Shown in pieces: positions 21,282-30,765 of a stretch of DNA of 64,000 bases. Within the stretch, counting starts at the first letter, position 1; each line of letters starts with the position of its first letter. Source of the DNA: Comamonadaceae bacterium (GTDB taxonomy: Bacteria > Pseudomonadota > Gammaproteobacteria > Burkholderiales > Burkholderiaceae_C); the NCBI GenBank assembly GCA_947476285.1, contig CANJPU010000008.1, forward strand, positions 1 to 64,000, read 5' to 3'. A model generated the notes under the pieces. That model made no database searches and was not told where the DNA came from. It was given only the letters and a program-made list of their open reading frames with translations. The translations under genes were made by a program, and so were the position numbers.

Positions 21282-21914
21282 CGACAAGCCAATGAGATCT
21301 TCAAGCTCGGAGTGTGCCAGGCCATCGACCTTTTCGATGAGCTTCAGACCTTGCGGCGTGCAGGCCAGCGTGGCGATGTCCAAGTAAATGCGTTTGACGC
21401 AGCCACCCGCAGTGAGCGGGTAGCTGCATTGCTTGACGATTTTGCTCTCGCCAGTCTTGGTCAGCAACTCCATCATCACCCAGATTTGTTTGGCCCCGAT
21501 GGCCAAGTCCATGGCGCCACCCACGCCCGGGATGGAGTCTGCTTCGTCAGTGCTCCAATTGGCGAGGTCGCCCGTACTTGAAACCTGATAAGCCCCGAGC
21601 ACGCAAATATCAATATGGCCGCCGCGAATCATGCCAAAGCTGTCGGCATGATGAAAGAACGAGCCTCCCTTGAGCAGCGTGACGGGCTGCTTGCCGGCGT
21701 TGACCAGGTCATAGTCTTCTTCGCCCGGCGGCGGCGTGGGGCCCATACCCAAGACGCCGTTCTCGCTGTGCAAGATGATTTCACGACCCCCGAGGTGTTC
21801 CCCGACAAGAGTGGGTCGCCCGAACCCGAGGTTGACAACCGCGCCCTCGAATATGTCCTGCGCCACACGCGCAGCGAGCTGATCTTTGGTGCGTCTTTGG
21901 TAAGCCATGGTCAT
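21270..21914 (-). CDS. pcaJ: 3-oxoacid (3-oxoadipate-type) CoA-transferase subunit B
   Basis: 214 aa family I CoA-transferase beta subunit. The catalytic Glu is E51 in the SENGVLGMGP motif, followed by the usual GGSFFHHADSFGMIRGGHID. Subunits A and B together move CoA from succinyl-CoA to a 3-oxoacid. It overlaps the A-subunit gene by 4 bp. Sequence style is closest to PcaIJ (3-oxoadipate), but ScoAB/AtoDA-like roles cannot be excluded, and no other beta-ketoadipate genes are in the window. It is the last gene of the selenoprotein operon. Confidence 0.88.
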   Translation of the reverse strand: MTMAYQRRTKDQLAARVAQDIFEGAVVNLGFGRPTLVGEHLGGREIILHSENGVLGMGPTPPPGEEDYDLVNAGKQPVTLLKGGSFFHHADSFGMIRGGHIDICVLGAYQVSSTGDLANWSTDEADSIPGVGGAMDLAIGAKQIWVMMELLTKTGESKIVKQCSYPLTAGGCVKRIYLDIATLACTPQGLKLIEKVDGLAHSELEDLIGLSISI

Positions 21915-22612
21915 GCTGCCTGCTTGGAGCCGACGGCCGGACTGGAGACGCGGTCAATCTTGACGATCTTGTGAACGAAGATGCCGGGGGTGACGATGGT
22001 TTCGGGATCCATCTGGCCCAGCTCGACGATTTCATGCACGCTCGCCACGGTGCGCTGTGCGGCCGTCGCCATCACTGGCCCGAAGTTGCGTGCGGTCTTG
22101 CGGTAGCTGAGGTTGCCCCAGCGGTCCCCCGTCTCGGCCTTGATCAGCGCCACATCGCCATGGATCGGATATTCCAGCACATACTGCTTGCCGCTGATCT
22201 CACGCGTTTCGCGGTCGCCAGCCAGGCGCGTGCCAAAGCCCGTGGGGCAGAAGAAGGCACCAATGCCGGCGCCGGCCGCGCGGATGCGCTCGGCCAGATT
22301 GCCCTGCGGCACCAGCTCCAGCTCCAGCTTGCCGCTGCGGTACAGGCCGTCAAACACATGACTGTCGGCCTGGCGCGGAAAACTGCAAATGATCTTCTTC
22401 ACCCGGCCCGCCTTGAGCAGGGCCGCCAAGCCGTATTCGCCATTACCGGCGTTGTTGTTGACGACGGTCAGGTCTTTGGCCCCCTGCTCGATCAGGCCCT
22501 CAACCAGCTCATTGGGAATGCCCGTGGTGCCGAAACCGCCGATCAAGACGGTGGAGCCATCTTTCACGCCTGCCAGCGCATCGGCCGCAGAGCGCGCAAT
22601 CTTGTTGATCAT
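21911..22612 (-). CDS. pcaI: 3-oxoacid (3-oxoadipate-type) CoA-transferase subunit A
   Basis: 233 aa CoA-binding subunit with the family glycine-rich motif GGFGTTGIPNEL (residues 25-36), NNNAGNGEYGLAALLKAG and GTRLAG later in the chain. Length is normal. It starts 12 bp after the stop of the UGSC selenoprotein gene, so the selenoprotein and this enzyme are almost certainly co-transcribed. The CoA acceptor may be the product of the selenoprotein's unknown reaction (inference). Confidence 0.88.
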   Translation of the reverse strand: MINKIARSAADALAGVKDGSTVLIGGFGTTGIPNELVEGLIEQGAKDLTVVNNNAGNGEYGLAALLKAGRVKKIICSFPRQADSHVFDGLYRSGKLELELVPQGNLAERIRAAGAGIGAFFCPTGFGTRLAGDRETREISGKQYVLEYPIHGDVALIKAETGDRWGNLSYRKTARNFGPVMATAAQRTVASVHEIVELGQMDPETIVTPGIFVHKIVKIDRVSSPAVGSKQAA

Positions 22613-22624
22613 TCCCCAAACACC

Positions 22625-23170
22625 CTATGCAAGGTTCGTCTTCGTCAGTTTCTCGATCGTCTGCGTGCACACTTCGTCGCACACCTCCATCAGTGCTTCA
22701 TCGCTGATGTACTCCGGGTTGCCCTTGATGTGAATCCCAATGGACTCTGGCACATTCTGGGCGCGCATCACCGTCAAGGCGAGCTTATGGAATTGCTCGG
22801 TACAAACCACAACAGCGGGCAAGCCACGCTTGATCAACTCTGCGGTGCCATGGACACTCCACGACGTGCAGGCTCCTCAGTTGGCCATCCCTAAGATGGC
22901 TGCATCGTTCTCCTGCGCGATCTGGTCCATCAGGCTCGGCGGCGCTATGTGCGAAGAGGAAAACCTATACGTGGTGAACGACGCAATGCCCAAGGGCTGC
23001 AGCAGCACTTCCAGCCGCTCGCCCATCTTGCCAAAGCTCTTCCAGCCGTTTTCGACGAACGCAATCCGTTTGCCGCGCAGGCCCTCCAGCGTGGGCACTT
23101 TCAGTCGTCCATCCTTGGGCGGTATGGATGGGTCCAGATACTGCATGCTTGCGCTTGCGCCTTGCATCAT
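22625..23170 (-). CDS. UGSC-family selenoprotein; TGA at 22877-22879 read as selenocysteine (Sec98)
   Basis: 181 aa if the in-frame TGA (codon 98) is decoded as selenocysteine. Codons 1-97 end ILGMAN; after the TGA the same frame continues GACTSWSVHGTAEL and runs to a stop at 22625. The combined product matches the UGSC (seleno)protein family: VENGWKSFGK region, then the U-G-x-C redox motif (here U98-G-A-C101), TSWSVH, KRGLPAVVVCTEQF. Coding character is the same on both sides of the TGA. ATG 23170 has AGGAG 7 bp ahead and overlaps the upstream stop (ATGA). Gene callers would give two ORFs, the second with a false TTG start at 22837. A hairpin just after the TGA is a candidate SECIS. The reaction is unknown; U-x-x-C suggests redox chemistry. 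Decoding needs selA/selB/selC/selD elsewhere in the genome. Confidence 0.87.
22841..22870 (-). promoter_or_regulatory. Candidate bacterial SECIS hairpin after the Sec codon
   Basis: In the mRNA, GUCGUGGA pairs with UCCAUGGC (8 bp including two G-U pairs) around a GUG loop; below an AC/ACC internal loop, UGC pairs with GCA. The apical loop begins 19 nt after the UGA and contains G in its first two bases, in line with the usual description of bacterial SECIS elements (stem-loop just 3' of UGA, short loop with G/U). The folding was done by eye; no energy was calculated. Confidence 0.55.
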
Positions 23171-24228
23171 GGTTTGCTCCTGTGAGGTTGATCGATGGCC
23201 ACGGTCACCGGGTCGGTGTGCCCGAAGCTGGGTATGTAGGTGATGTGGTAGGCCTCGGGCCCTCCCGCCACCACAATGGCGATGTCTTCTGGCTTGCGGC
23301 AGATCAGGCACATTTGTTCGGGCGGGAAATCAAGGTACACGGGGCGCAAGAGGTTACGCTCTCTCGGAATATGCGAGCGCGGTATCTTGGTGTGCTCAAA
23401 TAGGTGTTCCTGAATGCGCCGCTTGCTCCAGCCGGCCTGCGCAAAAAACTTTGCATGGCCCGGATTCATCACCACCATCGGGCTGCCCACCGCGCGAAGG
23501 TAAGTGTTGTAGCCATAGCAGCGCATCGCATCGGCCAGCATGTGCAGCACGTTCTCTGGCTCCAGGTACTGTGCCAGGATATTGGCGGTGCCTTGCCCGC
23601 CAAAGGCAGTGACCGTGCTTTGCTCCCGAGCGAACCCGTGTTCGACATGGTAGGGTTCCCAAGGGGTCTCTTCGTCCAGCTCGCCAAAGCAGAAGGTGAA
23701 CTTGCCCGGCATGCCGTGCGTGGCCTTGTCGATCTCGCCAGGGGTGGCGCCACCGCAATTGATCATGATCAGTCGCAAGGCTCTGCCGATGGTGGCATTG
23801 GCGCGCCAGCCCGGCCCCAGGCATCCGCGCCCGCCGTTGATGTCGAGTTCCTTGCGGATCGGCCCATTCACCACCAGGATGGGCGAGACCGGATTGGTGG
23901 TGGCCTGTATGCCAAGCAGGTTGAAATCAGGCGTTGCAATCGCCTTGAGTGCAGCGACGATCACAGGAAAGTATTGCGGCAGGCATCCGGCCATGACCGC
24001 ATTGATCGCAGCCTTTTCCACCGTGACAGGAACGTCATTGGGCATGAGCTGGACGATCACCGCATCAGGAGCCATCCCCATGTATTCGATGACTTCAAGC
24101 ACAGCCTCTTCGGTGGGGGGAACCACCGGCAGTCCGTCAGTGAAGCCGCGGTCGTACATGTCCGACTGCAAGGCGCGGTTGTCGTCGGTCGTTTGCCATC
24201 TGCGCGCGCTGAGCGTGATCGTGGACAT
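23167..24228 (-). CDS. Conserved protein paired with the UGSC selenoprotein, function unknown
   Basis: 353 aa, probably cytoplasmic (no signal peptide or membrane segment). I do not recognise a named catalytic domain. Visible blocks: YDRGFTDGLPVVPPTEE near residues 26-42, NPVSPILVVNGPI near 112, GRGCLGPGWRANATIGRA near 133-150 and CLICRKPEDIAIVVAGGPEAY near the C-terminus (a C-x2-C pair). The downstream UGSC gene starts inside its stop codon, so the two are translationally coupled and may form one complex or pathway. Start ATG 24228 has AGGG 7 bp ahead. Confidence 0.8.
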   Translation of the reverse strand: MSTITLSARRWQTTDDNRALQSDMYDRGFTDGLPVVPPTEEAVLEVIEYMGMAPDAVIVQLMPNDVPVTVEKAAINAVMAGCLPQYFPVIVAALKAIATPDFNLLGIQATTNPVSPILVVNGPIRKELDINGGRGCLGPGWRANATIGRALRLIMINCGGATPGEIDKATHGMPGKFTFCFGELDEETPWEPYHVEHGFAREQSTVTAFGGQGTANILAQYLEPENVLHMLADAMRCYGYNTYLRAVGSPMVVMNPGHAKFFAQAGWSKRRIQEHLFEHTKIPRSHIPRERNLLRPVYLDFPPEQMCLICRKPEDIAIVVAGGPEAYHITYIPSFGHTDPVTVAIDQPHRSKP

Positions 24229-24581: not shown

Positions 24582-25763
24582 ATGATTACGCATTCCGGAC
24601 GGACTCTTCTCGCTGCAGTTGCAGCAAGCTTGATGGCAAGCACAGCAATGGCTGCCGACACCATCAAACTAGGGCTTAGTGTGCCAATGTCAGGTGGAGG
24701 AGCCGCCTGGGGGCTGGGAAGCCAGTGGGCTTGCAAAGAAGCCGCCCAGGAGATCAACGCGGCTGGCGGCGTCAAGGTGGCTGGCAAGGTCTACGAGTTT
24801 TCTTGCATCGCGTACGACAACAAGTACACATCGGCAGAAGGCACCAAGGTTGCTCAGACGCTTCTTAATAGAGATGGCGTCAAGTTCGTGGTTGGCATTG
24901 TCGGTACGCCGCCGTATCAGGCGCTGCAGTCGCTGTCGGAGCGTCAAGGTGTTCTGATCTTCACCCACAGTTGGTCGAGCAGCACCAAAGGCCCCAAGTT
25001 TCCACTCACGTTCACGGCAGCCAACACGCCCAACGAGATCTTTCCCAGCTTCATCAAATACATCGCTTCAGCCAACCCGCAGGCCAAGACGGTCGCTCTG
25101 CTCGGCGCGAACGACTCCACTGGCAAGGAAGTCGAGCCCAAGTCCCTTAGCGCCTGGAAGGACGCTGGTGTGCAGGTTGTAGGGAGTGACTTCTATGAGC
25201 GCGGCACCACCGACTTCCAGCCCATCGCATTGCGCCTCACCTCAAAGTCCCCGGCCATCATCGATTTGGGTGCCATCTCGCCTGGCGATGCCGGTCTGAT
25301 TTTGAAGGAGCTCGCGGCTCTGGGGTGGAAGGGTGTGAAAGCCTGGGGTGCGGGGTCTGGCGCCGAAGACGTTGTTGCGACAGCGGGCGCGGCCGCAAAT
25401 GGTGTTTACATGTCGCTGGGCGTGCCCTACGGCACGAGCGCAGTTCCCGGCCCACTTGCCAAACTCAACGAAAAGGCGCTCCCGGTACTGGGCGTGTCCC
25501 TCGGCGCCAGCCACATTGCGGTGTACGACACGGTTCACGCGCTCAAGGCTGGAATGGAGAAAGCACAGAGCGTAGAGCCCACCAAGGTGGCGGCAGTTCT
25601 GCCATCGGTGCGGTTTAACACTCTCTACGGTGGGACAGCCGGCTTCGGTGGAACCAGCACTTACGGTTCGCCGCAACAAACCCTTCTGCCTTACTTCGTG
25701 ACCCAGGTGCGCGAGGGCAAGCTGGTGGGGGTGTCTCGTATGGACGGTCCAAAGGGCAACTGA
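24582..25763 (+). CDS. Branched-chain-amino-acid-type ABC transporter substrate-binding protein (LivK-like)
   Basis: 393 aa periplasmic receptor. A Sec signal ends at AMAA (about residue 24), followed by TIKLGLSVPMSGGGAAWG, the typical opening of type I (LivJ/K) binding proteins, AAQEINAAGGV near residue 50 and CIAYDNKYTSAEGTKVAQ. TAGGAGAC precedes the ATG. It is the first gene of a complete five-gene liv operon. Many relatives in Burkholderiales bind aromatic or aliphatic acids, so amino acids are not certain. Confidence 0.9.
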   Translation: MITHSGRTLLAAVAASLMASTAMAADTIKLGLSVPMSGGGAAWGLGSQWACKEAAQEINAAGGVKVAGKVYEFSCIAYDNKYTSAEGTKVAQTLLNRDGVKFVVGIVGTPPYQALQSLSERQGVLIFTHSWSSSTKGPKFPLTFTAANTPNEIFPSFIKYIASANPQAKTVALLGANDSTGKEVEPKSLSAWKDAGVQVVGSDFYERGTTDFQPIALRLTSKSPAIIDLGAISPGDAGLILKELAALGWKGVKAWGAGSGAEDVVATAGAAANGVYMSLGVPYGTSAVPGPLAKLNEKALPVLGVSLGASHIAVYDTVHALKAGMEKAQSVEPTKVAAVLPSVRFNTLYGGTAGFGGTSTYGSPQQTLLPYFVTQVREGKLVGVSRMDGPKGN

Positions 25764-25801
25764 CTTCACGGTATTGAGCATCCTGCAGGGGTAATTGACG
25801 C

Positions 25802-26680
25802 ATGCAAACTGTGATCCAGCTCGCCACAATTTGCCTGCAGGTCAGTTCTGTTTACATACTGTTTTCACTGGGGTTGACACTGGTTTACGGTGTCATGGGG
25901 ATCGTCAATTTTGCCCACGGACAGATCTTCGCGCTGTCCGCGCTGATCGTCGCGGTCACCATTCCACCTCTGGCCAGTGCCGGCTTCTCGGTACTGACAG
26001 CCTATACGCTGGCGAGTTTGCTTGGATTCGTGGTTGCGGTGACTGCGGGGATATTGGTCTACATTTTCTTTCTCCGCTTCTTCTGGAGCGACCACAACGG
26101 CTCGTTCATCTTGACGATAGGCATCGTGCTGTTTACAGACGGTGTCCTGCTCGCCTTGTTTGGAGGAAACGTTCGGCAGGTGCCGGACGTATTCAATGGC
26201 GATGCCATTTCAGTGTTCGGTGCGCGTGTGGCATCGCAACGCTTGATCCCTTGTGCGGTGGCGATTGTGGCCACGCTTGTGCTGTACCTGGCACTGGCTC
26301 GAACGAAACTGGGCCTAGCATTGCGGGCTGTGGCGGCTGATCATGAGGCCGCGATGCTGCAGGGTATTCCCTATGCACGCATCGCTTTCCTCGGCTTTGT
26401 CATCGCGACGGCGCTTGCCGCAATCGCAGGCGCGGTGATCGCTCCCCTTGCTGCCGTGTCCCCCAATCTGGGTGCCGACTACATCATCAGGGGCTTCATC
26501 GCAGTGATCCTGGGTGGGCTGGGGAGCGTGTCCGGCGCGATTCTTGGATCAATATTCATCGCCGTCATTGAAACCGTTGGCGGTTTTTACTTCGACGCAT
26601 CTTCGGCCAACATACTGATCTTTGTTCTTGTGATCCTGGTTCTGCTCTTGCGTCCAAGAGGCTTGTTGGGACATGCATAA
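25802..26680 (+). CDS. Branched-chain-type ABC permease (LivH family)
   Basis: 292 aa, about eight hydrophobic segments, with the LivH-type GVMGIVNFAHGQIFALSALI near residues 31-50 and the inner-loop motif RAVAADHEAAMLQGI that docks the ATPases. It overlaps the LivM-like gene by 8 bp. It forms half of the inner-membrane channel for the LivK-like receptor at 24582. Confidence 0.92.
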   Translation: MQTVIQLATICLQVSSVYILFSLGLTLVYGVMGIVNFAHGQIFALSALIVAVTIPPLASAGFSVLTAYTLASLLGFVVAVTAGILVYIFFLRFFWSDHNGSFILTIGIVLFTDGVLLALFGGNVRQVPDVFNGDAISVFGARVASQRLIPCAVAIVATLVLYLALARTKLGLALRAVAADHEAAMLQGIPYARIAFLGFVIATALAAIAGAVIAPLAAVSPNLGADYIIRGFIAVILGGLGSVSGAILGSIFIAVIETVGGFYFDASSANILIFVLVILVLLLRPRGLLGHA

Positions 26681-27623
26681 ACTCTCGGCCCGTTGGCTGC
26701 TGGCTTTTTGTGTGCCAGCGCTCGCCCTTTCCGTGTTCGTCACTGATCCTTACCGGCTCAGCCTGCTGAATCTGATCGCCATCAGTGCGGTCATTGCGGC
26801 CAGCCTTCGCTTTGTCATGCTGATTGGTGAGCTCAATATGGCTGTGGCGGCTTCCATGGGCCTGGGCGCCTACGGCGCGGGTGCGGCCACCACCATGTTT
26901 CAACTGCCATTCTTGAGTTCTCTCATGATTGGAGCGCTGGTCGCCACGATCATCTGCACGGTGTTTGGTGCGATCACACTGCGCGCCAAAGGTCCCTATT
27001 TCATGCTGATGGGGTTTGCCTTTTCAGAATTCATGAGAATCCTCTATACCAGGAGCGACTGGCTCGGTGGCAATTCGGGGCTGGTAGGAATATTCCCGCC
27101 AAAGTATATGACGCCCTGGATGCCGACCTTCGTTGTCGTGGTCGCGATCATCCTGCTTGCTTTGCTATTTTGGTTGGAAAATCTTGACTTCGGTAGGGTC
27201 CTCGTCGGAATCCGTGACAACGAAGAAGTGGTACGCACGGTGGGCATCAACGTGACGCTCTATAAGATTTTGTGCGTCTCGATTGCCTCATTTTGCGCAG
27301 GCGCGGCAGGGGCACTCCATGCCTTTGTGAACAACGTCATCAGCCCCGCTGATTTTGGTTTTCTGGTGGGCGTCTTTGCGCTGAGTTACGTCAAGATCGG
27401 CGGTGAGTCGACGATTGTCGGACCAATCTTGGGCTCGATTCTTCTGGTCCTGCTCGGAAGCTACGCATTGGGGCTGGGCACTGGAGAGCACCTGTTCTAT
27501 GGGGCGGTCATCGTCTTCAGTATGTTGTTGTTGCCCGGTGGCATTTTGGGCCTTGGCTCCAAGTGGTATCGCTTGGCAATGGCAAAGCGGCGTGGCCTGT
27601 CTGCTCCTGCAAGCCCGAACTAG
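26673..27623 (+). CDS. Branched-chain-type ABC permease (LivM family)
   Basis: 316 aa second channel subunit, with the LivM-type loop ASMGLGAYGAG near residues 61-71 and RDNEEVVRTVGINVTLYK near 180. It overlaps livH and ends one base before the livG-like start, so the genes are tightly coupled. Confidence 0.92.
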   Translation: MHKLSARWLLAFCVPALALSVFVTDPYRLSLLNLIAISAVIAASLRFVMLIGELNMAVAASMGLGAYGAGAATTMFQLPFLSSLMIGALVATIICTVFGAITLRAKGPYFMLMGFAFSEFMRILYTRSDWLGGNSGLVGIFPPKYMTPWMPTFVVVVAIILLALLFWLENLDFGRVLVGIRDNEEVVRTVGINVTLYKILCVSIASFCAGAAGALHAFVNNVISPADFGFLVGVFALSYVKIGGESTIVGPILGSILLVLLGSYALGLGTGEHLFYGAVIVFSMLLLPGGILGLGSKWYRLAMAKRRGLSAPASPN

Positions 27624-27624
27624 C

Positions 27625-28395
27625 ATGACAAGCTCAGCAAGCGCAGCGGTGGATAAATCCGCCCCCCTTCTTGCCGCTTCCAATTTGACACGGCGCTTTG
27701 GCGGTTTGGTGGCCGTGTCAGATCTCAGCATGGAAGTCTGGCCAGGGGAAATCGCCGGCCTCATCGGGCCCAATGGCGCTGGCAAGAGCACGACCTTCAA
27801 TATGTTGAGCGGGTTTCTCAAGCCCTCGAGTGGTCGGCTCATGCTTTTTGGAAAAGATTGCACCGGGAAGTCACCGCTGGCGATCAGCAGAATGGGCCTT
27901 GTCAGGACTTTCCAGCACGGCAGCCTGATTCCGAGCATGACTGTTCGGGACAACATTCTTCTCGGAACCTTCCACAGCCTTTCTGGGCCCAAACACCGAG
28001 AGCGCAACTTGCGGGCAGAAGAGACCGCCGAGATCTTCGGCCTGAGCGATTACCTGGACTACATGTCTGGCGCATTGCCGCATGGGCTTCAACGCTTGGT
28101 CGGAATCGCGCTTGCGTTTGCGGCCAGGCCCAGGTTGCTTTGTCTGGACGAGCCACTGACCGGCCTGAATCAGACAGAGGTTGCCAGCACCCTGGAAGTG
28201 TTTCAGACCATTCGGCGCAGCTTTGACTGCTCCATCTTGCTTGTCGAGCACAACATGAAAGCGGTCATGACTGTCTGCGACAGAATCATCGTCATGCACC
28301 ACGGCCAGTATCTGGCAAGCGGCACCCCGCGAGAGATCCAGGCCAACGACGACGTTGTCGCCGCATACCTGGGCAAGCGTCATGCAAAACAGTGA
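27625..28395 (+). CDS. Branched-chain-type ABC ATP-binding protein (LivG family)
   Basis: 256 aa ATPase. Walker A is GPNGAGKST, the Q-loop region contains RTFQHGSLIPSMTVRDN (the LivG signature), Walker B is RLLCLDEPLTGLN and the switch His is in LLVEHNMKAVM. The usual LSGG signature reads GALPHGLQR, close to the LivG consensus (LSYGxQR) but with ALPHG. ATG 27625 begins one base after the livM stop; longer in-frame starts lie inside livM. Confidence 0.88.
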   Translation: MTSSASAAVDKSAPLLAASNLTRRFGGLVAVSDLSMEVWPGEIAGLIGPNGAGKSTTFNMLSGFLKPSSGRLMLFGKDCTGKSPLAISRMGLVRTFQHGSLIPSMTVRDNILLGTFHSLSGPKHRERNLRAEETAEIFGLSDYLDYMSGALPHGLQRLVGIALAFAARPRLLCLDEPLTGLNQTEVASTLEVFQTIRRSFDCSILLVEHNMKAVMTVCDRIIVMHHGQYLASGTPREIQANDDVVAAYLGKRHAKQ

Positions 28396-29104
28396 GATCT
28401 CGCTCCAAGTGCAGGGGCTGTGCGCCTCTTACGGTGTCACGCCTGCCATCCGGTCGGTGTCGCTGGAAGTCAAGCGCGGCACCATCGTCACCATCATTGG
28501 TGCCAACGGCGCAGGAAAATCGACGATCATCAAGACCATTTGCGGCTTGGTCAAGCCTACTGCTGGCAGCGTTCGGCTGTTCGGCGAGGAAGTGACCGGT
28601 CTTCCCACCCATGTGCTGGTGAAGAAGGGCATCTCAGTGGTGCCCGAAGGCCGGCGCCTCTTTACCAAGATGACGTTCAAGGAGAACCTTGAACTTGGCG
28701 CCTATGCAAGAAGTGATCGCATGGCCGTTCGACGCGACCTGGAACGCGTGCTGAATCTGTTTCCAGATCTTAAAGATCGACTGTCCACGGTTGTCGGCCG
28801 ATTCAGCGGCGGGCAGCAGCAGATGGTGGCAGTGGCAAGGGCATTGATGAACGAGCCGCGAATCATGCTGCTTGACGAGCCCACCATTGGCCTGGCGCCA
28901 GCCGTGGTGGACCGCATATCGGAACTGGTTGTCGAGATCTCCCGCAGCGGCGTCGACATCCTCCTTGTTGAACAGAATGCAGAGATCGCCCTTGAGATCG
29001 CCAGTTACGCCTACATCCTGGAGGCCGGGCAGGTGATTGCCCAAGACGCTGCCAGTACGCTGGCCAAAAGCGAGGCCGTACAGAAAGCCTACATGGGTAT
29101 TTGA
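28382..29104 (+). CDS. Branched-chain-type ABC ATP-binding protein (LivF family)
   Basis: 240 aa ATPase, second of the pair with LivG. Walker A is GANGAGKST, signature FSGGQQQM, Walker B IMLLDEPTIGLAP, switch His position replaced by the LivF-typical Q in LLVEQNAEIAL. The ATG at 28382 overlaps the livG end by 14 bp; the longer in-frame start at 28355 is unlikely. Confidence 0.92.
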   Translation: MQNSEISLQVQGLCASYGVTPAIRSVSLEVKRGTIVTIIGANGAGKSTIIKTICGLVKPTAGSVRLFGEEVTGLPTHVLVKKGISVVPEGRRLFTKMTFKENLELGAYARSDRMAVRRDLERVLNLFPDLKDRLSTVVGRFSGGQQQMVAVARALMNEPRIMLLDEPTIGLAPAVVDRISELVVEISRSGVDILLVEQNAEIALEIASYAYILEAGQVIAQDAASTLAKSEAVQKAYMGI

Positions 29105-29130: not shown

Positions 29131-30765
29131 TTGGCAATTGACGACCCTGTTCACTATGACTTCATCGTTGTCGGTGGGGGATCGGCCGGATGCGTCCTGG
29201 CCAACCGCTTGTCGGCGAACCCGCGCAACACAGTGCTCCTGCTTGAAGCAGGCCCTCCTGACCGCGATCTTCGCATTCACGTCCCCGGCGCCTATGTTTT
29301 TAATCTCACCAATCCTGGCGTCACTCGCCACTGCTTGACCGAGCCCATCCCAGGCTTGAACGGCAGACGCCTGGATTGGCTGCGGGGGCAGGTGCTGGGG
29401 GGTTCGAGCGCGATCAATGGCCTCTTGTACATGCGCGGACAACGCCAGGATTTCGATGAATGGCGCCAGCTCGGAAACATCGGATGGGGTTATGAAGATT
29501 TGCTGCCGTATTTCCGCAAGGCTGAGTGCGCTGAGCAGGGTGAAAGCAAGTATCACGGTGGAGACGGCCCCCTGCATGTTTCAAACTTGCGCGCCAATTA
29601 TGAATTGCATGACGCGTTCATCAGCGCGGCGGTGGATGCGGGCTATCCGCTGAACAATGACTTCAATGGCGAAACTCAGGAAGGGGCAGGGCGCTTTCAG
29701 CTCACCATAAAAGGCCGGCGCCGAAGCAGCTCGGCGTACGCCTATCTGAGCAAAGCAAAGTCCAGGCGCAATCTCACGATCCAGACCGGCGCTGTGGTTG
29801 ACCGTGTGGTGTTTGAGGGGCAACGCGCGGCAGGTGTGGCGTACTCGGTCGGGGGTGTCAAGAGCACCGCGATGGCACGATCAGAGATCGTGCTGTCTGC
29901 CGGGACCATCGGCTCGCCGCTGATCTTGCAGCGCTCGGGCATCGGCGACGCCGATGAACTTGGCAGACTTGGGGTCAACATCGTTGCCAACGCACCGGCG
30001 GTCGGTCGAAACTTGCAAGACCATCTCGGGATGCGGCTGGTCTACCAGACAAACCGCCCCAATACGCTCAACGATGTTTACAGAAGTCCCATCAGGAAGC
30101 TGTTGACGGGTCTTGACTACATTTTTCGCGGACATGGCGCACTGATGATGGGGGCAGGGCCGATCGGCCTGTGCGCGAAGAGCAGGCCCGAGCTGCAGAC
30201 ACCTGACGTCCAGATTCTCTTCTTTGCAGGCAGTGCGGACGGCGTAGGTAAACCGCCTCACCCGTTTCCGGGGTGTTCTCTGGTTGCCGTGCCCGGGCGC
30301 ATGAAGAGCCGTGGCTCCTTGCGTATTCGCTCCACAGATCCACACGACGATCCGATCATCGAACCGAACTATCTGTCAGCGCCTGGGGACTTGGCCAAAC
30401 TGGTCGAAGGGGTCAAGATCGTGCGGCGCGTCATGTCCATGCCGTCCATCGCAAAGCAGGTGGTGCAAGAGTTCATTCCGGGCCAATCGGTCGCGGATGA
30501 AGCGGCCTTGGAGCAGTTTGTCCGTGACCGTGCATCCACTACGTTTCACTTTGTGGCCACCTGCGCGATGGGGCCGGGTGAAGACAGCGTTGTCGACAAC
30601 ACGCTTAGAGTGCGCGGCGTTCAAAATTTGCGCGTGGCCGATGCATCTGTGTGCCCTTTCGTCATATCCGGAAACACCAACGCCATTGCGATTGCCATCG
30701 GGGAAAAGGCGGCCGACCTGCTACTGCAAGTGGATGTCGGCCGCACAACCGCAGCCGTGGCTTGA
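29131..30765 (+). CDS. GMC-family FAD-dependent oxidoreductase (choline/alcohol dehydrogenase-like)
   Basis: 544 aa flavoenzyme that oxidises alcohols to aldehydes. The N-terminal FAD-binding motif is DFIVVGGGSAGCVLANRLS (residues 10-28), followed by WLRGQVLGGSSAING, the second family signature. The active-site His is in TTFHFVATCAMG and the Asn/His partner position in VISGNTNAIAIAIGEKAADLL. The TTG start at 29131 has GGAGAG 5-6 bp ahead. It stands right after the liv transporter and shortly before an aldehyde dehydrogenase (31801, opposite strand), suggesting alcohol-to-acid oxidation of the imported compound. Confidence 0.88.
   Translation: MAIDDPVHYDFIVVGGGSAGCVLANRLSANPRNTVLLLEAGPPDRDLRIHVPGAYVFNLTNPGVTRHCLTEPIPGLNGRRLDWLRGQVLGGSSAINGLLYMRGQRQDFDEWRQLGNIGWGYEDLLPYFRKAECAEQGESKYHGGDGPLHVSNLRANYELHDAFISAAVDAGYPLNNDFNGETQEGAGRFQLTIKGRRRSSSAYAYLSKAKSRRNLTIQTGAVVDRVVFEGQRAAGVAYSVGGVKSTAMARSEIVLSAGTIGSPLILQRSGIGDADELGRLGVNIVANAPAVGRNLQDHLGMRLVYQTNRPNTLNDVYRSPIRKLLTGLDYIFRGHGALMMGAGPIGLCAKSRPELQTPDVQILFFAGSADGVGKPPHPFPGCSLVAVPGRMKSRGSLRIRSTDPHDDPIIEPNYLSAPGDLAKLVEGVKIVRRVMSMPSIAKQVVQEFIPGQSVADEAALEQFVRDRASTTFHFVATCAMGPGEDSVVDNTLRVRGVQNLRVADASVCPFVISGNTNAIAIAIGEKAADLLLQVDVGRTTAAVA

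What the first reader, a model, noticed from the sequence alone, without database searches (positions are those of the whole stretch)
22625..23170. In-frame TGA in a UGSC-family gene: selenocysteine encoded at residue 98 (motif U-G-A-C)
On the minus strand the frame from ATG 23170 runs into TGA at 22877-22879 and continues without a break in the same frame to 22625. The residues on both sides (ILGMAN / GACTSWSVH) form the family signature in which the first position of U-G-x-C is Sec or Cys. Gene callers split it into two ORFs or call the second from a false TTG start. The variant UGAC, in place of the UGSC the family is named for, is also notable. The family's biochemical role is, as far as I know, not established.
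Basis: partly seen in the sequence, partly recalled or inferred. Interest (0 to 1): 0.93.

Follow-up and report, generated by a model that had tools for sequence, protein, structure and literature searches.

The report
Selenocysteine gene and its obligate partner
This gene runs on through an in-frame UGA codon that is predicted to be read as selenocysteine, one of eleven such genes in its genome that each lie beside or fused to the same unnamed kind of partner gene, and the two proteins likely form an enzyme that breaks down small organic molecules by reduction.

Summary
Confirmed. On the minus strand one frame runs from ATG 23170 through TGA 22877-22879 to TAG 22625 and encodes a 181-residue UGSC-family protein (Pfam PF24696, 86 bits). 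The genome has selA, selB, selC and selD, and 12 UGSC domains, 11 with TGA at the same motif position; all 120 listed homologues have Cys there. Among 40 distant genomes selB passed its cut-off in 32 of 35 with the TGA form and 0 of 5 with the Cys form.

The larger result is the partner. The 353-aa gene upstream (23167-24228) matched no Pfam, NCBIfam or PDB family. All 12 copies in this genome sit beside or fused to a UGSC domain, as do 75 of 80 loci elsewhere. Fusions occur in both orders. Two relatives have 24 UGSC matches each.

UGSC proteins weakly but specifically resemble the selenocysteine domain of glycine and D-proline reductases (22 of 47 members; best E 4e-5). I propose a two-subunit selenolate reductase: the partner binds the substrate, Sec/Cys cleaves it, a thioredoxin-type system resets it. 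That chemistry is inferred. UGSC selenoproteins are known; I did not find the rest in print, but a key 2025 paper was not readable.

The parts
22625..23170 (-). UGSC-family gene, 181 aa with the TGA read as Sec (residue 98)
   Evidence: Pfam PF24696 86.4 bits; NF041046 68.2 bits, below its cut-off of 125
22877..22879 (-). in-frame TGA, predicted selenocysteine codon
   Evidence: Cys in this column in 120 of 120 listed homologues
22868..22879 (-). U-G-A-C motif codons
   Evidence: third position Ala in 6 and Gly in 7 of 134 sites
22836..22874 (-). candidate bacterial SECIS hairpin right after the UGA, loop G at +20
   Evidence: fold -17 kcal/mol, z -1.68 against dinucleotide shuffles, 13 of 200 shuffles as good; hairpin in 8 of 8 own-genome sites evaluated; nucleotide-level conservation across four genes
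23177..23181 (-). AGGAG, likely ribosome-binding site of the UGSC gene, 6 nt before the ATG
   Evidence: sequence
23167..24228 (-). partner gene, 353 aa, D-G-L-P-V-V-P-P-T family; its stop overlaps the UGSC start
   Evidence: no Pfam or NCBIfam family; 12 of 12 copies paired with a UGSC domain
21911..22612 (-). 3-oxoacid CoA-transferase subunit A, 12 nt downstream of the UGSC stop
   Evidence: TIGR02429 367.8 bits
21270..21914 (-). 3-oxoacid CoA-transferase subunit B, overlapping subunit A
   Evidence: TIGR02428 262.9 bits
20235..21224 (+). TctC solute-binding protein, convergent neighbour
   Evidence: PF03401 180 bits

Best explanation
The gene at 22625-23170 contains an in-frame UGA that is predicted to be read as selenocysteine, and its UGSC-family product likely works as the selenolate half of a two-subunit reductase whose other half is the 353-aa protein encoded just upstream. 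Shown by sequence: the open frame, the conserved motif, the selA, selB, selC and selD genes, and the pairing with the partner. Inferred: the partner binds and polarises a small organic acid or a similar catabolic substrate; the Sec (Cys in other organisms), which the model places after the third core strand of a Rossmann-like domain, attacks a C-N, C-S, C-O or C-halogen bond, as proposed for GrdB, PrdB and FarB; the neighbouring Cys of U-x-x-C resolves the adduct as a selenenyl sulphide; and a thioredoxin reductase-type flavoprotein encoded between selC and selB resupplies electrons. The product would pass to the CoA-transferase encoded downstream. The many paralogous pairs would serve different substrates.
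For: Sec: frame and family; selC 74 bits, selB 407.5, selA 567, selD 427; 11 of 12 own UGSC domains with TGA; Cys in 120 of 120 listed; selB over cut-off in 32 of 35 TGA-form genomes, 0 of 5 Cys-form; p 8.5e-5; constraint on the RNA after the UGA. Pairing: with 27, 29, 30 (12 of 12), (75 of 80 loci within 2 kb, median gap 61 nt; 28 of the 30 genomes holding either family hold both, of 250 searched), fusions in both orders. Reductase resemblance: at E up to 0.1 (GrdB model in 22 of 47 members, GrdF 16, GrdB/PrdB subfamily 14, GrdH 8, PrdB 7; no unrelated family in more than 3); U-x-x-C-x-x-C in 22 of 118 sites. Electron supply: TrxR-like protein with CADC between selC and selB, with a relative beside selB in 3 of 6 relatives examined. 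Catabolic setting: CoA-transferase operon, TctC in 44 of 99 neighbouring ORFs of betaproteobacterial loci.
Against: No enzyme activity or substrate is known. The resemblance to GrdB rests on weak scores (E 0.00029 for the window protein), and Pfam shows nothing comparable. The partner shows no similarity to GrdE or PrdA, and its two frequent cysteines (C82 in 79 of 80, C180 in 77 of 80 rows) are absent from some own-genome paralogues (C82 from 2 of 12, C180 from 3 of 12), so the pyruvoyl mechanism is not supported. GrdA, GrdC and GrdD were not looked for. TctC genes are very common in this genome (at least 150), so that neighbour says little about the substrate; the neighbours in other phyla are mixed. 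The hairpin of the window gene alone is only moderately stable (z -1.68); in 3 of 8 own-genome sites the best of 12 shuffles folded better; RNAalifold found only a 4-pair consensus. Three order members with TGA-form UGSC genes show no selB (G052, G059, G144; 84%, 96% and 84% complete), as do 3 of the 35 distant ones.
Confidence: 0.5

Rival explanations
1. It is a real selenoprotein with its partner, but a thiol-redox or peroxide-detoxifying protein, as the 2008 survey supposed (thioredoxin-like fold, redox function), not a substrate-cleaving reductase.
For: The U-x-x-C motif is shared with many redox selenoproteins; PMC2398784 (passages) calls the UGSC protein likely Trx-like; one own partner carries an N-terminal stretch with C-P-T-C (L032).
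Confidence: 0.22
2. It is a Sec/Cys-dependent lyase, isomerase or hydrolase: the selenolate serves as a nucleophile without net reduction, and the partner is the main catalytic subunit.
For: The partner has invariant polar residues (D31, R149, E183, W190 in 80 of 80 rows); Foldseek ranks 1-14 for the partner are fumarate hydratases, weakly (best E 3.4e-3).
Confidence: 0.2
3. The TGA is an ordinary stop, a sequencing error or a pseudogene mutation.
For: One copy in the genome has a degenerate motif (C87).
Against: Eleven copies with the TGA in one column, full Sec machinery, conservation after the TGA, and association with selB.
Confidence: 0.02

Closest known systems
UGSC family (seleno)protein, Pfam PF24696 / NCBIfam NF041046
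   Same: Length, motif position, Sec or Cys at the first position; over 47 aligned members P14, the Sec/Cys and G99 are invariant and C101, D108, G116 and F127 nearly so; the 47 scanned match both models.
   Different: Motif is UGAC; the score is under the NF041046 cut-off (68 of 125 bits). The partner gene is not part of either model.
Glycine/sarcosine/betaine reductase protein B (GrdB, GrdF, GrdH) and D-proline reductase PrdB
   Same: Weak but specific profile similarity around the Sec, window residues 76-155 against GrdB profile positions 325-401; U-x-x-C; a second subunit encoded beside it (GrdE, PrdA: recalled); substrate-specific paralogues.
   Different: 181 aa against GrdB profiles of 431-435 positions; the window gene lacks the third Cys of UxxCxxC; the partner is unrelated by sequence to GrdE/PrdA; the loci found lie mostly in betaproteobacteria, Chloroflexota, Rokubacteria, Nitrospinota and the like.
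FarB/FarE of monofluoroacetate reduction in Synergistota (PMC10838667, passages)
   Same: A predicted selenoprotein related to GrdB with a second subunit that is not a pyruvoyl proprotein, proposed to attack C-F with Sec; eight grdB-type genes in that genome.
   Different: FarB and FarE are homologues of GrdB and GrdE; the UGSC pair is only distantly similar in one half.
UGSC/Unknown_1 fusion reported in the ocean survey (PMC2398784, passages)
   Same: A UGSC domain fused to a conserved domain of unknown function.
   Different: Whether Unknown_1 is this partner could not be checked, since the supplementary figure was not read. That paper infers a Trx-like fold.

Membership tests
UGSC family (PF24696) | score above the Pfam gathering threshold | tested here: met
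   86.4 bits against 25
UGSC family (NF041046 equivalog) | score above the curated equivalog cut-off of 125 bits | tested here: not met
   68.2 bits; so filed under PF24696 only
UGSC family (PF24696) | Sec or Cys at the first motif position, Cys at the fourth | tested here: met
   TGA and TGC codons; Cys in both columns in 120 of 120 listed homologues
Bacterial selenoprotein | Sec biosynthesis and insertion genes in the same genome | tested here: met
   selC, selB, selA, selD over cut-off
Bacterial selenoprotein | SECIS hairpin directly after the UGA with a G in the apical loop | tested here: met
   hairpin with loop G at +20; energy alone is moderate (z -1.68); family-wide signal beyond synonymous shuffles. 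The criterion is recalled from the bSECIS literature
Bacterial selenoprotein | selenium in the purified protein | not testable with these tools
   needs 75Se label or mass spectrometry
GrdB/PrdB selenoproteins | score above the curated cut-off of a GrdB/PrdB model | tested here: not met
   19.9 bits against 602.2 for TIGR01917, 14.9 against 65.45 for TIGR01918, 14.9 against 800 for GrdF
GrdB/PrdB selenoproteins | UxxCxxC motif | tested here: not met
   window gene has U-G-A-C-T-S-W; 22 of 118 other sites have UxxCxxC
GrdB/PrdB selenoproteins | GrdE/PrdA-type pyruvoyl second subunit | tested here: not met
   no GrdE or PrdA family among the matches of 80 partner proteins at E up to 1
GrdB/PrdB selenoproteins | GrdA, GrdC, GrdD or PrdC in the genome | not tested
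Thioredoxin-fold selenoproteins | Trx fold | tested here: inconclusive
   predicted order of elements is alternating strand-helix, Rossmann-like; the structural search covers only Foldseek's own hits

The most novel reading that the evidence does not exclude
UGSC proteins and the D-G-L-P-V-V-P-P-T partner family form a large, unrecognised superfamily of two-subunit selenocysteine reductases, remote cousins of the Stickland glycine and proline reductases, spread through betaproteobacteria, Chloroflexota, Rokubacteria and haloarchaea. Genomes carry up to two dozen pairs, each for a different organic acid or halogenated, aminated or sulphonated substrate, and the Sec machinery of these betaproteobacteria is kept, and passed on, chiefly for them.
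Probability: 0.38. Interest if true: 0.87.

Novelty: new variant of a known kind. Interest (0 to 1): 0.66.

Why it matters
UGSC has been listed as a selenoprotein family without a known role since 2007-2008, and a 2016 survey of more than 5200 organisms counted 33 in 26 organisms. Here one genome has 11 with TGA and two relatives have 24 UGSC matches each. Nearly 8000 partner proteins matched, and none of the 120 listed bears a name beyond hypothetical protein; the nine partner-UGSC fusions among them are cut one residue before the Sec. A fixed partner, a likely enzyme class and a candidate electron donor turn an orphan family into something that can be assayed. If the reductase reading holds, selenium-dependent reductive cleavage reaches far beyond amino-acid fermenters, with consequences for breakdown of fluorinated, aminated and sulphonated carbon in water and soil.

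Tried and rejected

Literature: searches (listings). Read as passages: PMC2398784, PMC13188914, PMC9312934, PMC5029168, PMC10838667; one part of the reference list of PMC13188914; PMC12013277 was searched for five terms, none found. Not held: PMC12013261 (Haft and Tolstoy 2025, selenoprotein neighbourhoods), PMC9879109, PMC1976440. So the partner and the reductase link may already be in print there.

Full report
Observation. On the minus strand a frame runs from ATG 23170 to TAG 22625 with a single in-frame TGA at 22877-22879, residue 98. The ORF list ends a 144-aa frame at that TGA. The joined 181-aa product matches Pfam PF24696 UGSC over residues 23-176 (86.4 bits, gathering score 25). It matches NCBIfam NF041046 at 68.2 bits, below the curated 125. 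The start has AGGAG 6 nt upstream and overlaps the stop of the upstream gene.

Sec machinery. The window is contig C8 of a 4.89 Mb genome in 117 contigs, 94.9% complete. It has tRNA-Sec (C95, 74 bits; a second, marginal match of 47.2 bits against a cut-off of 47 lies on C22), selB near it (407.5 bits), selA (567 bits) and selD (427 bits), all over their cut-offs. ARAGORN also calls the C95 tRNA-Sec, anticodon TCA.

Paralogues. A search with the window protein found 9 matches, each with exactly one TGA inside; a search with the alignment of 11 found 12. Eleven carry TGA in the same motif column: C8, C19, C90, C12, C70, C1 twice, C56, C57, C49 and C5. The twelfth (C87) is a fused, degenerate copy without the motif. 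In the 11, P14, the Sec/Cys, the following Gly and C101 are invariant.

Homologues. Of 411 homologous proteins found with the profile, the best 120 are listed, and these 120 have Cys at the TGA column, Ser at the third and Cys at the fourth position. Predicted-protein databases should favour the Cys form, because Sec genes are split, so this shows the Sec/Cys exchange but not its frequency. In DNA of the loci held, 134 of 140 distinct motif sites have TGA and 6 a Cys codon. The third position among the TGA sites is Ser in 119, Gly in 7, Ala in 6, Thr in 1 and Asn in 1; so UGAC is a minor variant.

Link to selB. In 250 genomes of the same order, strong UGSC matches occur in 28 (one further weak match, G215, E 1.4e-4, was left out) and selB over cut-off in 68. 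Twenty-five of the 28 have selB, against 43 of the other 222. The three without are G052, G059 and G144 (84%, 96% and 84% complete). Relatedness is not controlled in that comparison. A second test used the genomes of 40 of the 80 named loci: selB passed its cut-off in 32 of 35 with the TGA form and in 0 of 5 with the Cys form (two haloarchaea, two sphingomonads and one methanogen record; p 8.5e-5). At E 1e-60 the bacterial selB model found only E. coli and the archaeon Methanocaldococcus jannaschii among 14 control genomes, which suggests that an archaeal SelB would be seen.

SECIS. The 47 nt from the UGA fold at -17 kcal/mol with a hairpin whose loop G lies at +20, but the z-score is only -1.68 and 13 of 200 shuffles do as well. 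Eight distinct own-genome sites were evaluated (3 of 11 fell out of the site list): all 8 have such a hairpin, -12.6 to -19.8 kcal/mol, shuffles averaging -8.7; in 3 of the 8 the best of 12 shuffles was lower. Over 119 sites the 45 nt after the UGA fold at -18.25 on average, against -16.39 (sd 0.22) when synonymous codons are shuffled between sequences; the 48 nt before it give -15.31 against -14.75 (sd 0.24). RNAalifold of the same sites gives only four pairs. A qualifying hairpin of -10 or better occurs in 106 of 118 sites, against 73-87 in six shuffles. The window gene and three genes of 44-51% protein identity to it are identical over 15 nt starting 7 nt after the Sec codon, synonymous positions included.

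Partner. The 353-aa gene 23167-24228 has no Pfam or NCBIfam family, and in 80 aligned relatives no family matches more than 4, none convincingly. No PDB chain matches its profile at E up to 10. The family is large: 7994 of the 7998 scored candidates match. The own genome has 12 copies, and each is adjacent to or fused with one of the 12 UGSC domains. In the order-wide set 28 genomes hold both families, one only the partner (G235) and one only a weak UGSC match (G215) (at most 8 and 13 candidates per genome were scored there). The 80 best-scoring partner loci of a collection of 84,980 species (574 confirmed, more exist) were kept: 75 have a UGSC domain within 2 kb (median gap 61 nt), one has it at 3.9 kb, and four have none, two of these lying at a contig end. 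They come from betaproteobacteria, Chloroflexota, Rokubacteria, Nitrospinota, a Bacillus, archaea and others. UGSC-partner fusions occur in the own genome (C1, C5, C87) and in L050, L054 and L097. Nine partner-UGSC fusions among the 120 listed partner proteins end with ...AIGD, one residue before the expected Sec: databases hold them truncated.

Expansion. With all candidates scored, two relatives have 24 UGSC matches each (G055: 24 with TGA; G140: 23 with TGA, one of these partial, and 1 without), others 19 and 14. A survey of more than 5200 organisms in 2016 listed 33 UGSC selenoproteins in 26 organisms (PMC5029168, passages; its abstract start). The largest selenoproteomes that a 2026 review names have 57 and 63 genes of all families (PMC13188914, passages). 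Six other genomes of the window's family in the set have neither UGSC nor partner, so the trait is patchy.

Reductase resemblance. When 47 UGSC proteins (a selection of those held) were scanned, GrdB (TIGR01917) appeared for 22 at E up to 0.1 (best 4e-5), GrdF for 16, the GrdB/PrdB subfamily for 14, GrdH for 8 and PrdB for 7; no unrelated family appeared for more than 3. Pfam showed nothing comparable. The window protein's stretch 76-155 aligns to GrdB positions 325-401, which by recall includes the GrdB Sec. In 22 of 118 sites the motif is U-x-x-C-x-x-C, the motif that the review gives for GrdB. The scores are below the curated cut-offs, so UGSC is not filed as GrdB or PrdB.

Setting. The likely operon is partner, UGSC, CoA-transferase A, CoA-transferase B. 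Between selC and selB lies a flavoprotein of the pyridine nucleotide-disulphide reductase family with a C-A-D-C motif, overlapping selB. I fetched six relatives because a UGSC or partner gene lies near selB there; three have a relative of this flavoprotein beside selB (L202, L203, L207), and in L202 the order on one strand is selB, flavoprotein, tRNA-Sec, UGSC, partner. Of 109 neighbouring ORFs from betaproteobacterial loci 99 were scanned: 44 are TctC solute-binding proteins. Of 114 from other phyla 100 were scanned: luciferase-like monooxygenases 6, class III CoA-transferases 5, family 5 solute-binding proteins 5, amidohydrolases 4, acyl-CoA dehydrogenases 3. The ORF calls come from a simple script.

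Interpretation. Shown: a conserved Sec codon, the machinery, the fixed partner, the expansion. Inferred: a two-subunit reductase in which the selenolate or thiolate cleaves a bond of a bound organic acid and is reset by a thioredoxin-type system. FarB/FarE, a GrdB-like predicted selenoprotein pair proposed to attack the C-F bond of monofluoroacetate, is a precedent for such chemistry with a second subunit that is not a pyruvoyl proprotein (PMC10838667, passages). I hold the selenoprotein reading at about 0.97 and the reductase mechanism at about 0.5.

Noticed in passing
C87 of the own genome; L046:4796-6412 (+): A fused UGSC-partner protein whose UGSC half lacks the U/C-x-x-C motif (reads LCDAG); perhaps a regulatory or decayed copy.
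   Followed up: partly
L032:7350-8786 (-), contig C56 of the own genome: A partner protein with an extra N-terminal stretch of about 110 aa holding C-P-T-C, thioredoxin-like by eye (Pfam gives only TraF at E 0.045), and with Ala in place of C82.
   Followed up: partly
L034:1487-4344 (-), contig C95: TrxR-like flavoprotein gene overlapping selB, with tRNA-Sec at its far side; a similar set lies beside UGSC genes in relatives (L202, L203).
   Followed up: partly
L076:722-1243 and L108:5345-5854: UGSC proteins with motif UGSS: the second redox Cys is Ser while the TGA is kept.
   Followed up: no
L184 (G002:C58:665-1180): A Cys-form UGSC gene in a genome that has selB over cut-off.
   Followed up: no
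L057 and L072 (Chloroflexota): Partner genes with no UGSC domain found in a locus of about 13 kb.
   Followed up: no
own genome: At least 150 TctC solute-binding protein genes (150 of 341 candidates scored).
   Followed up: no
L059, L068, L070, L114, L124: Metagenome-assembled records titled Bordetella parapertussis; their UGSC and partner genes resemble those of environmental betaproteobacteria, and the label is probably wrong (not tested).
   Followed up: no
window 24582-29104 (+): What looks like a branched-chain-type ABC transporter set (periplasmic binding protein PF13458 at its start), followed by a GMC oxidoreductase (29131-30765), divergent from the partner-UGSC operon.
   Followed up: no
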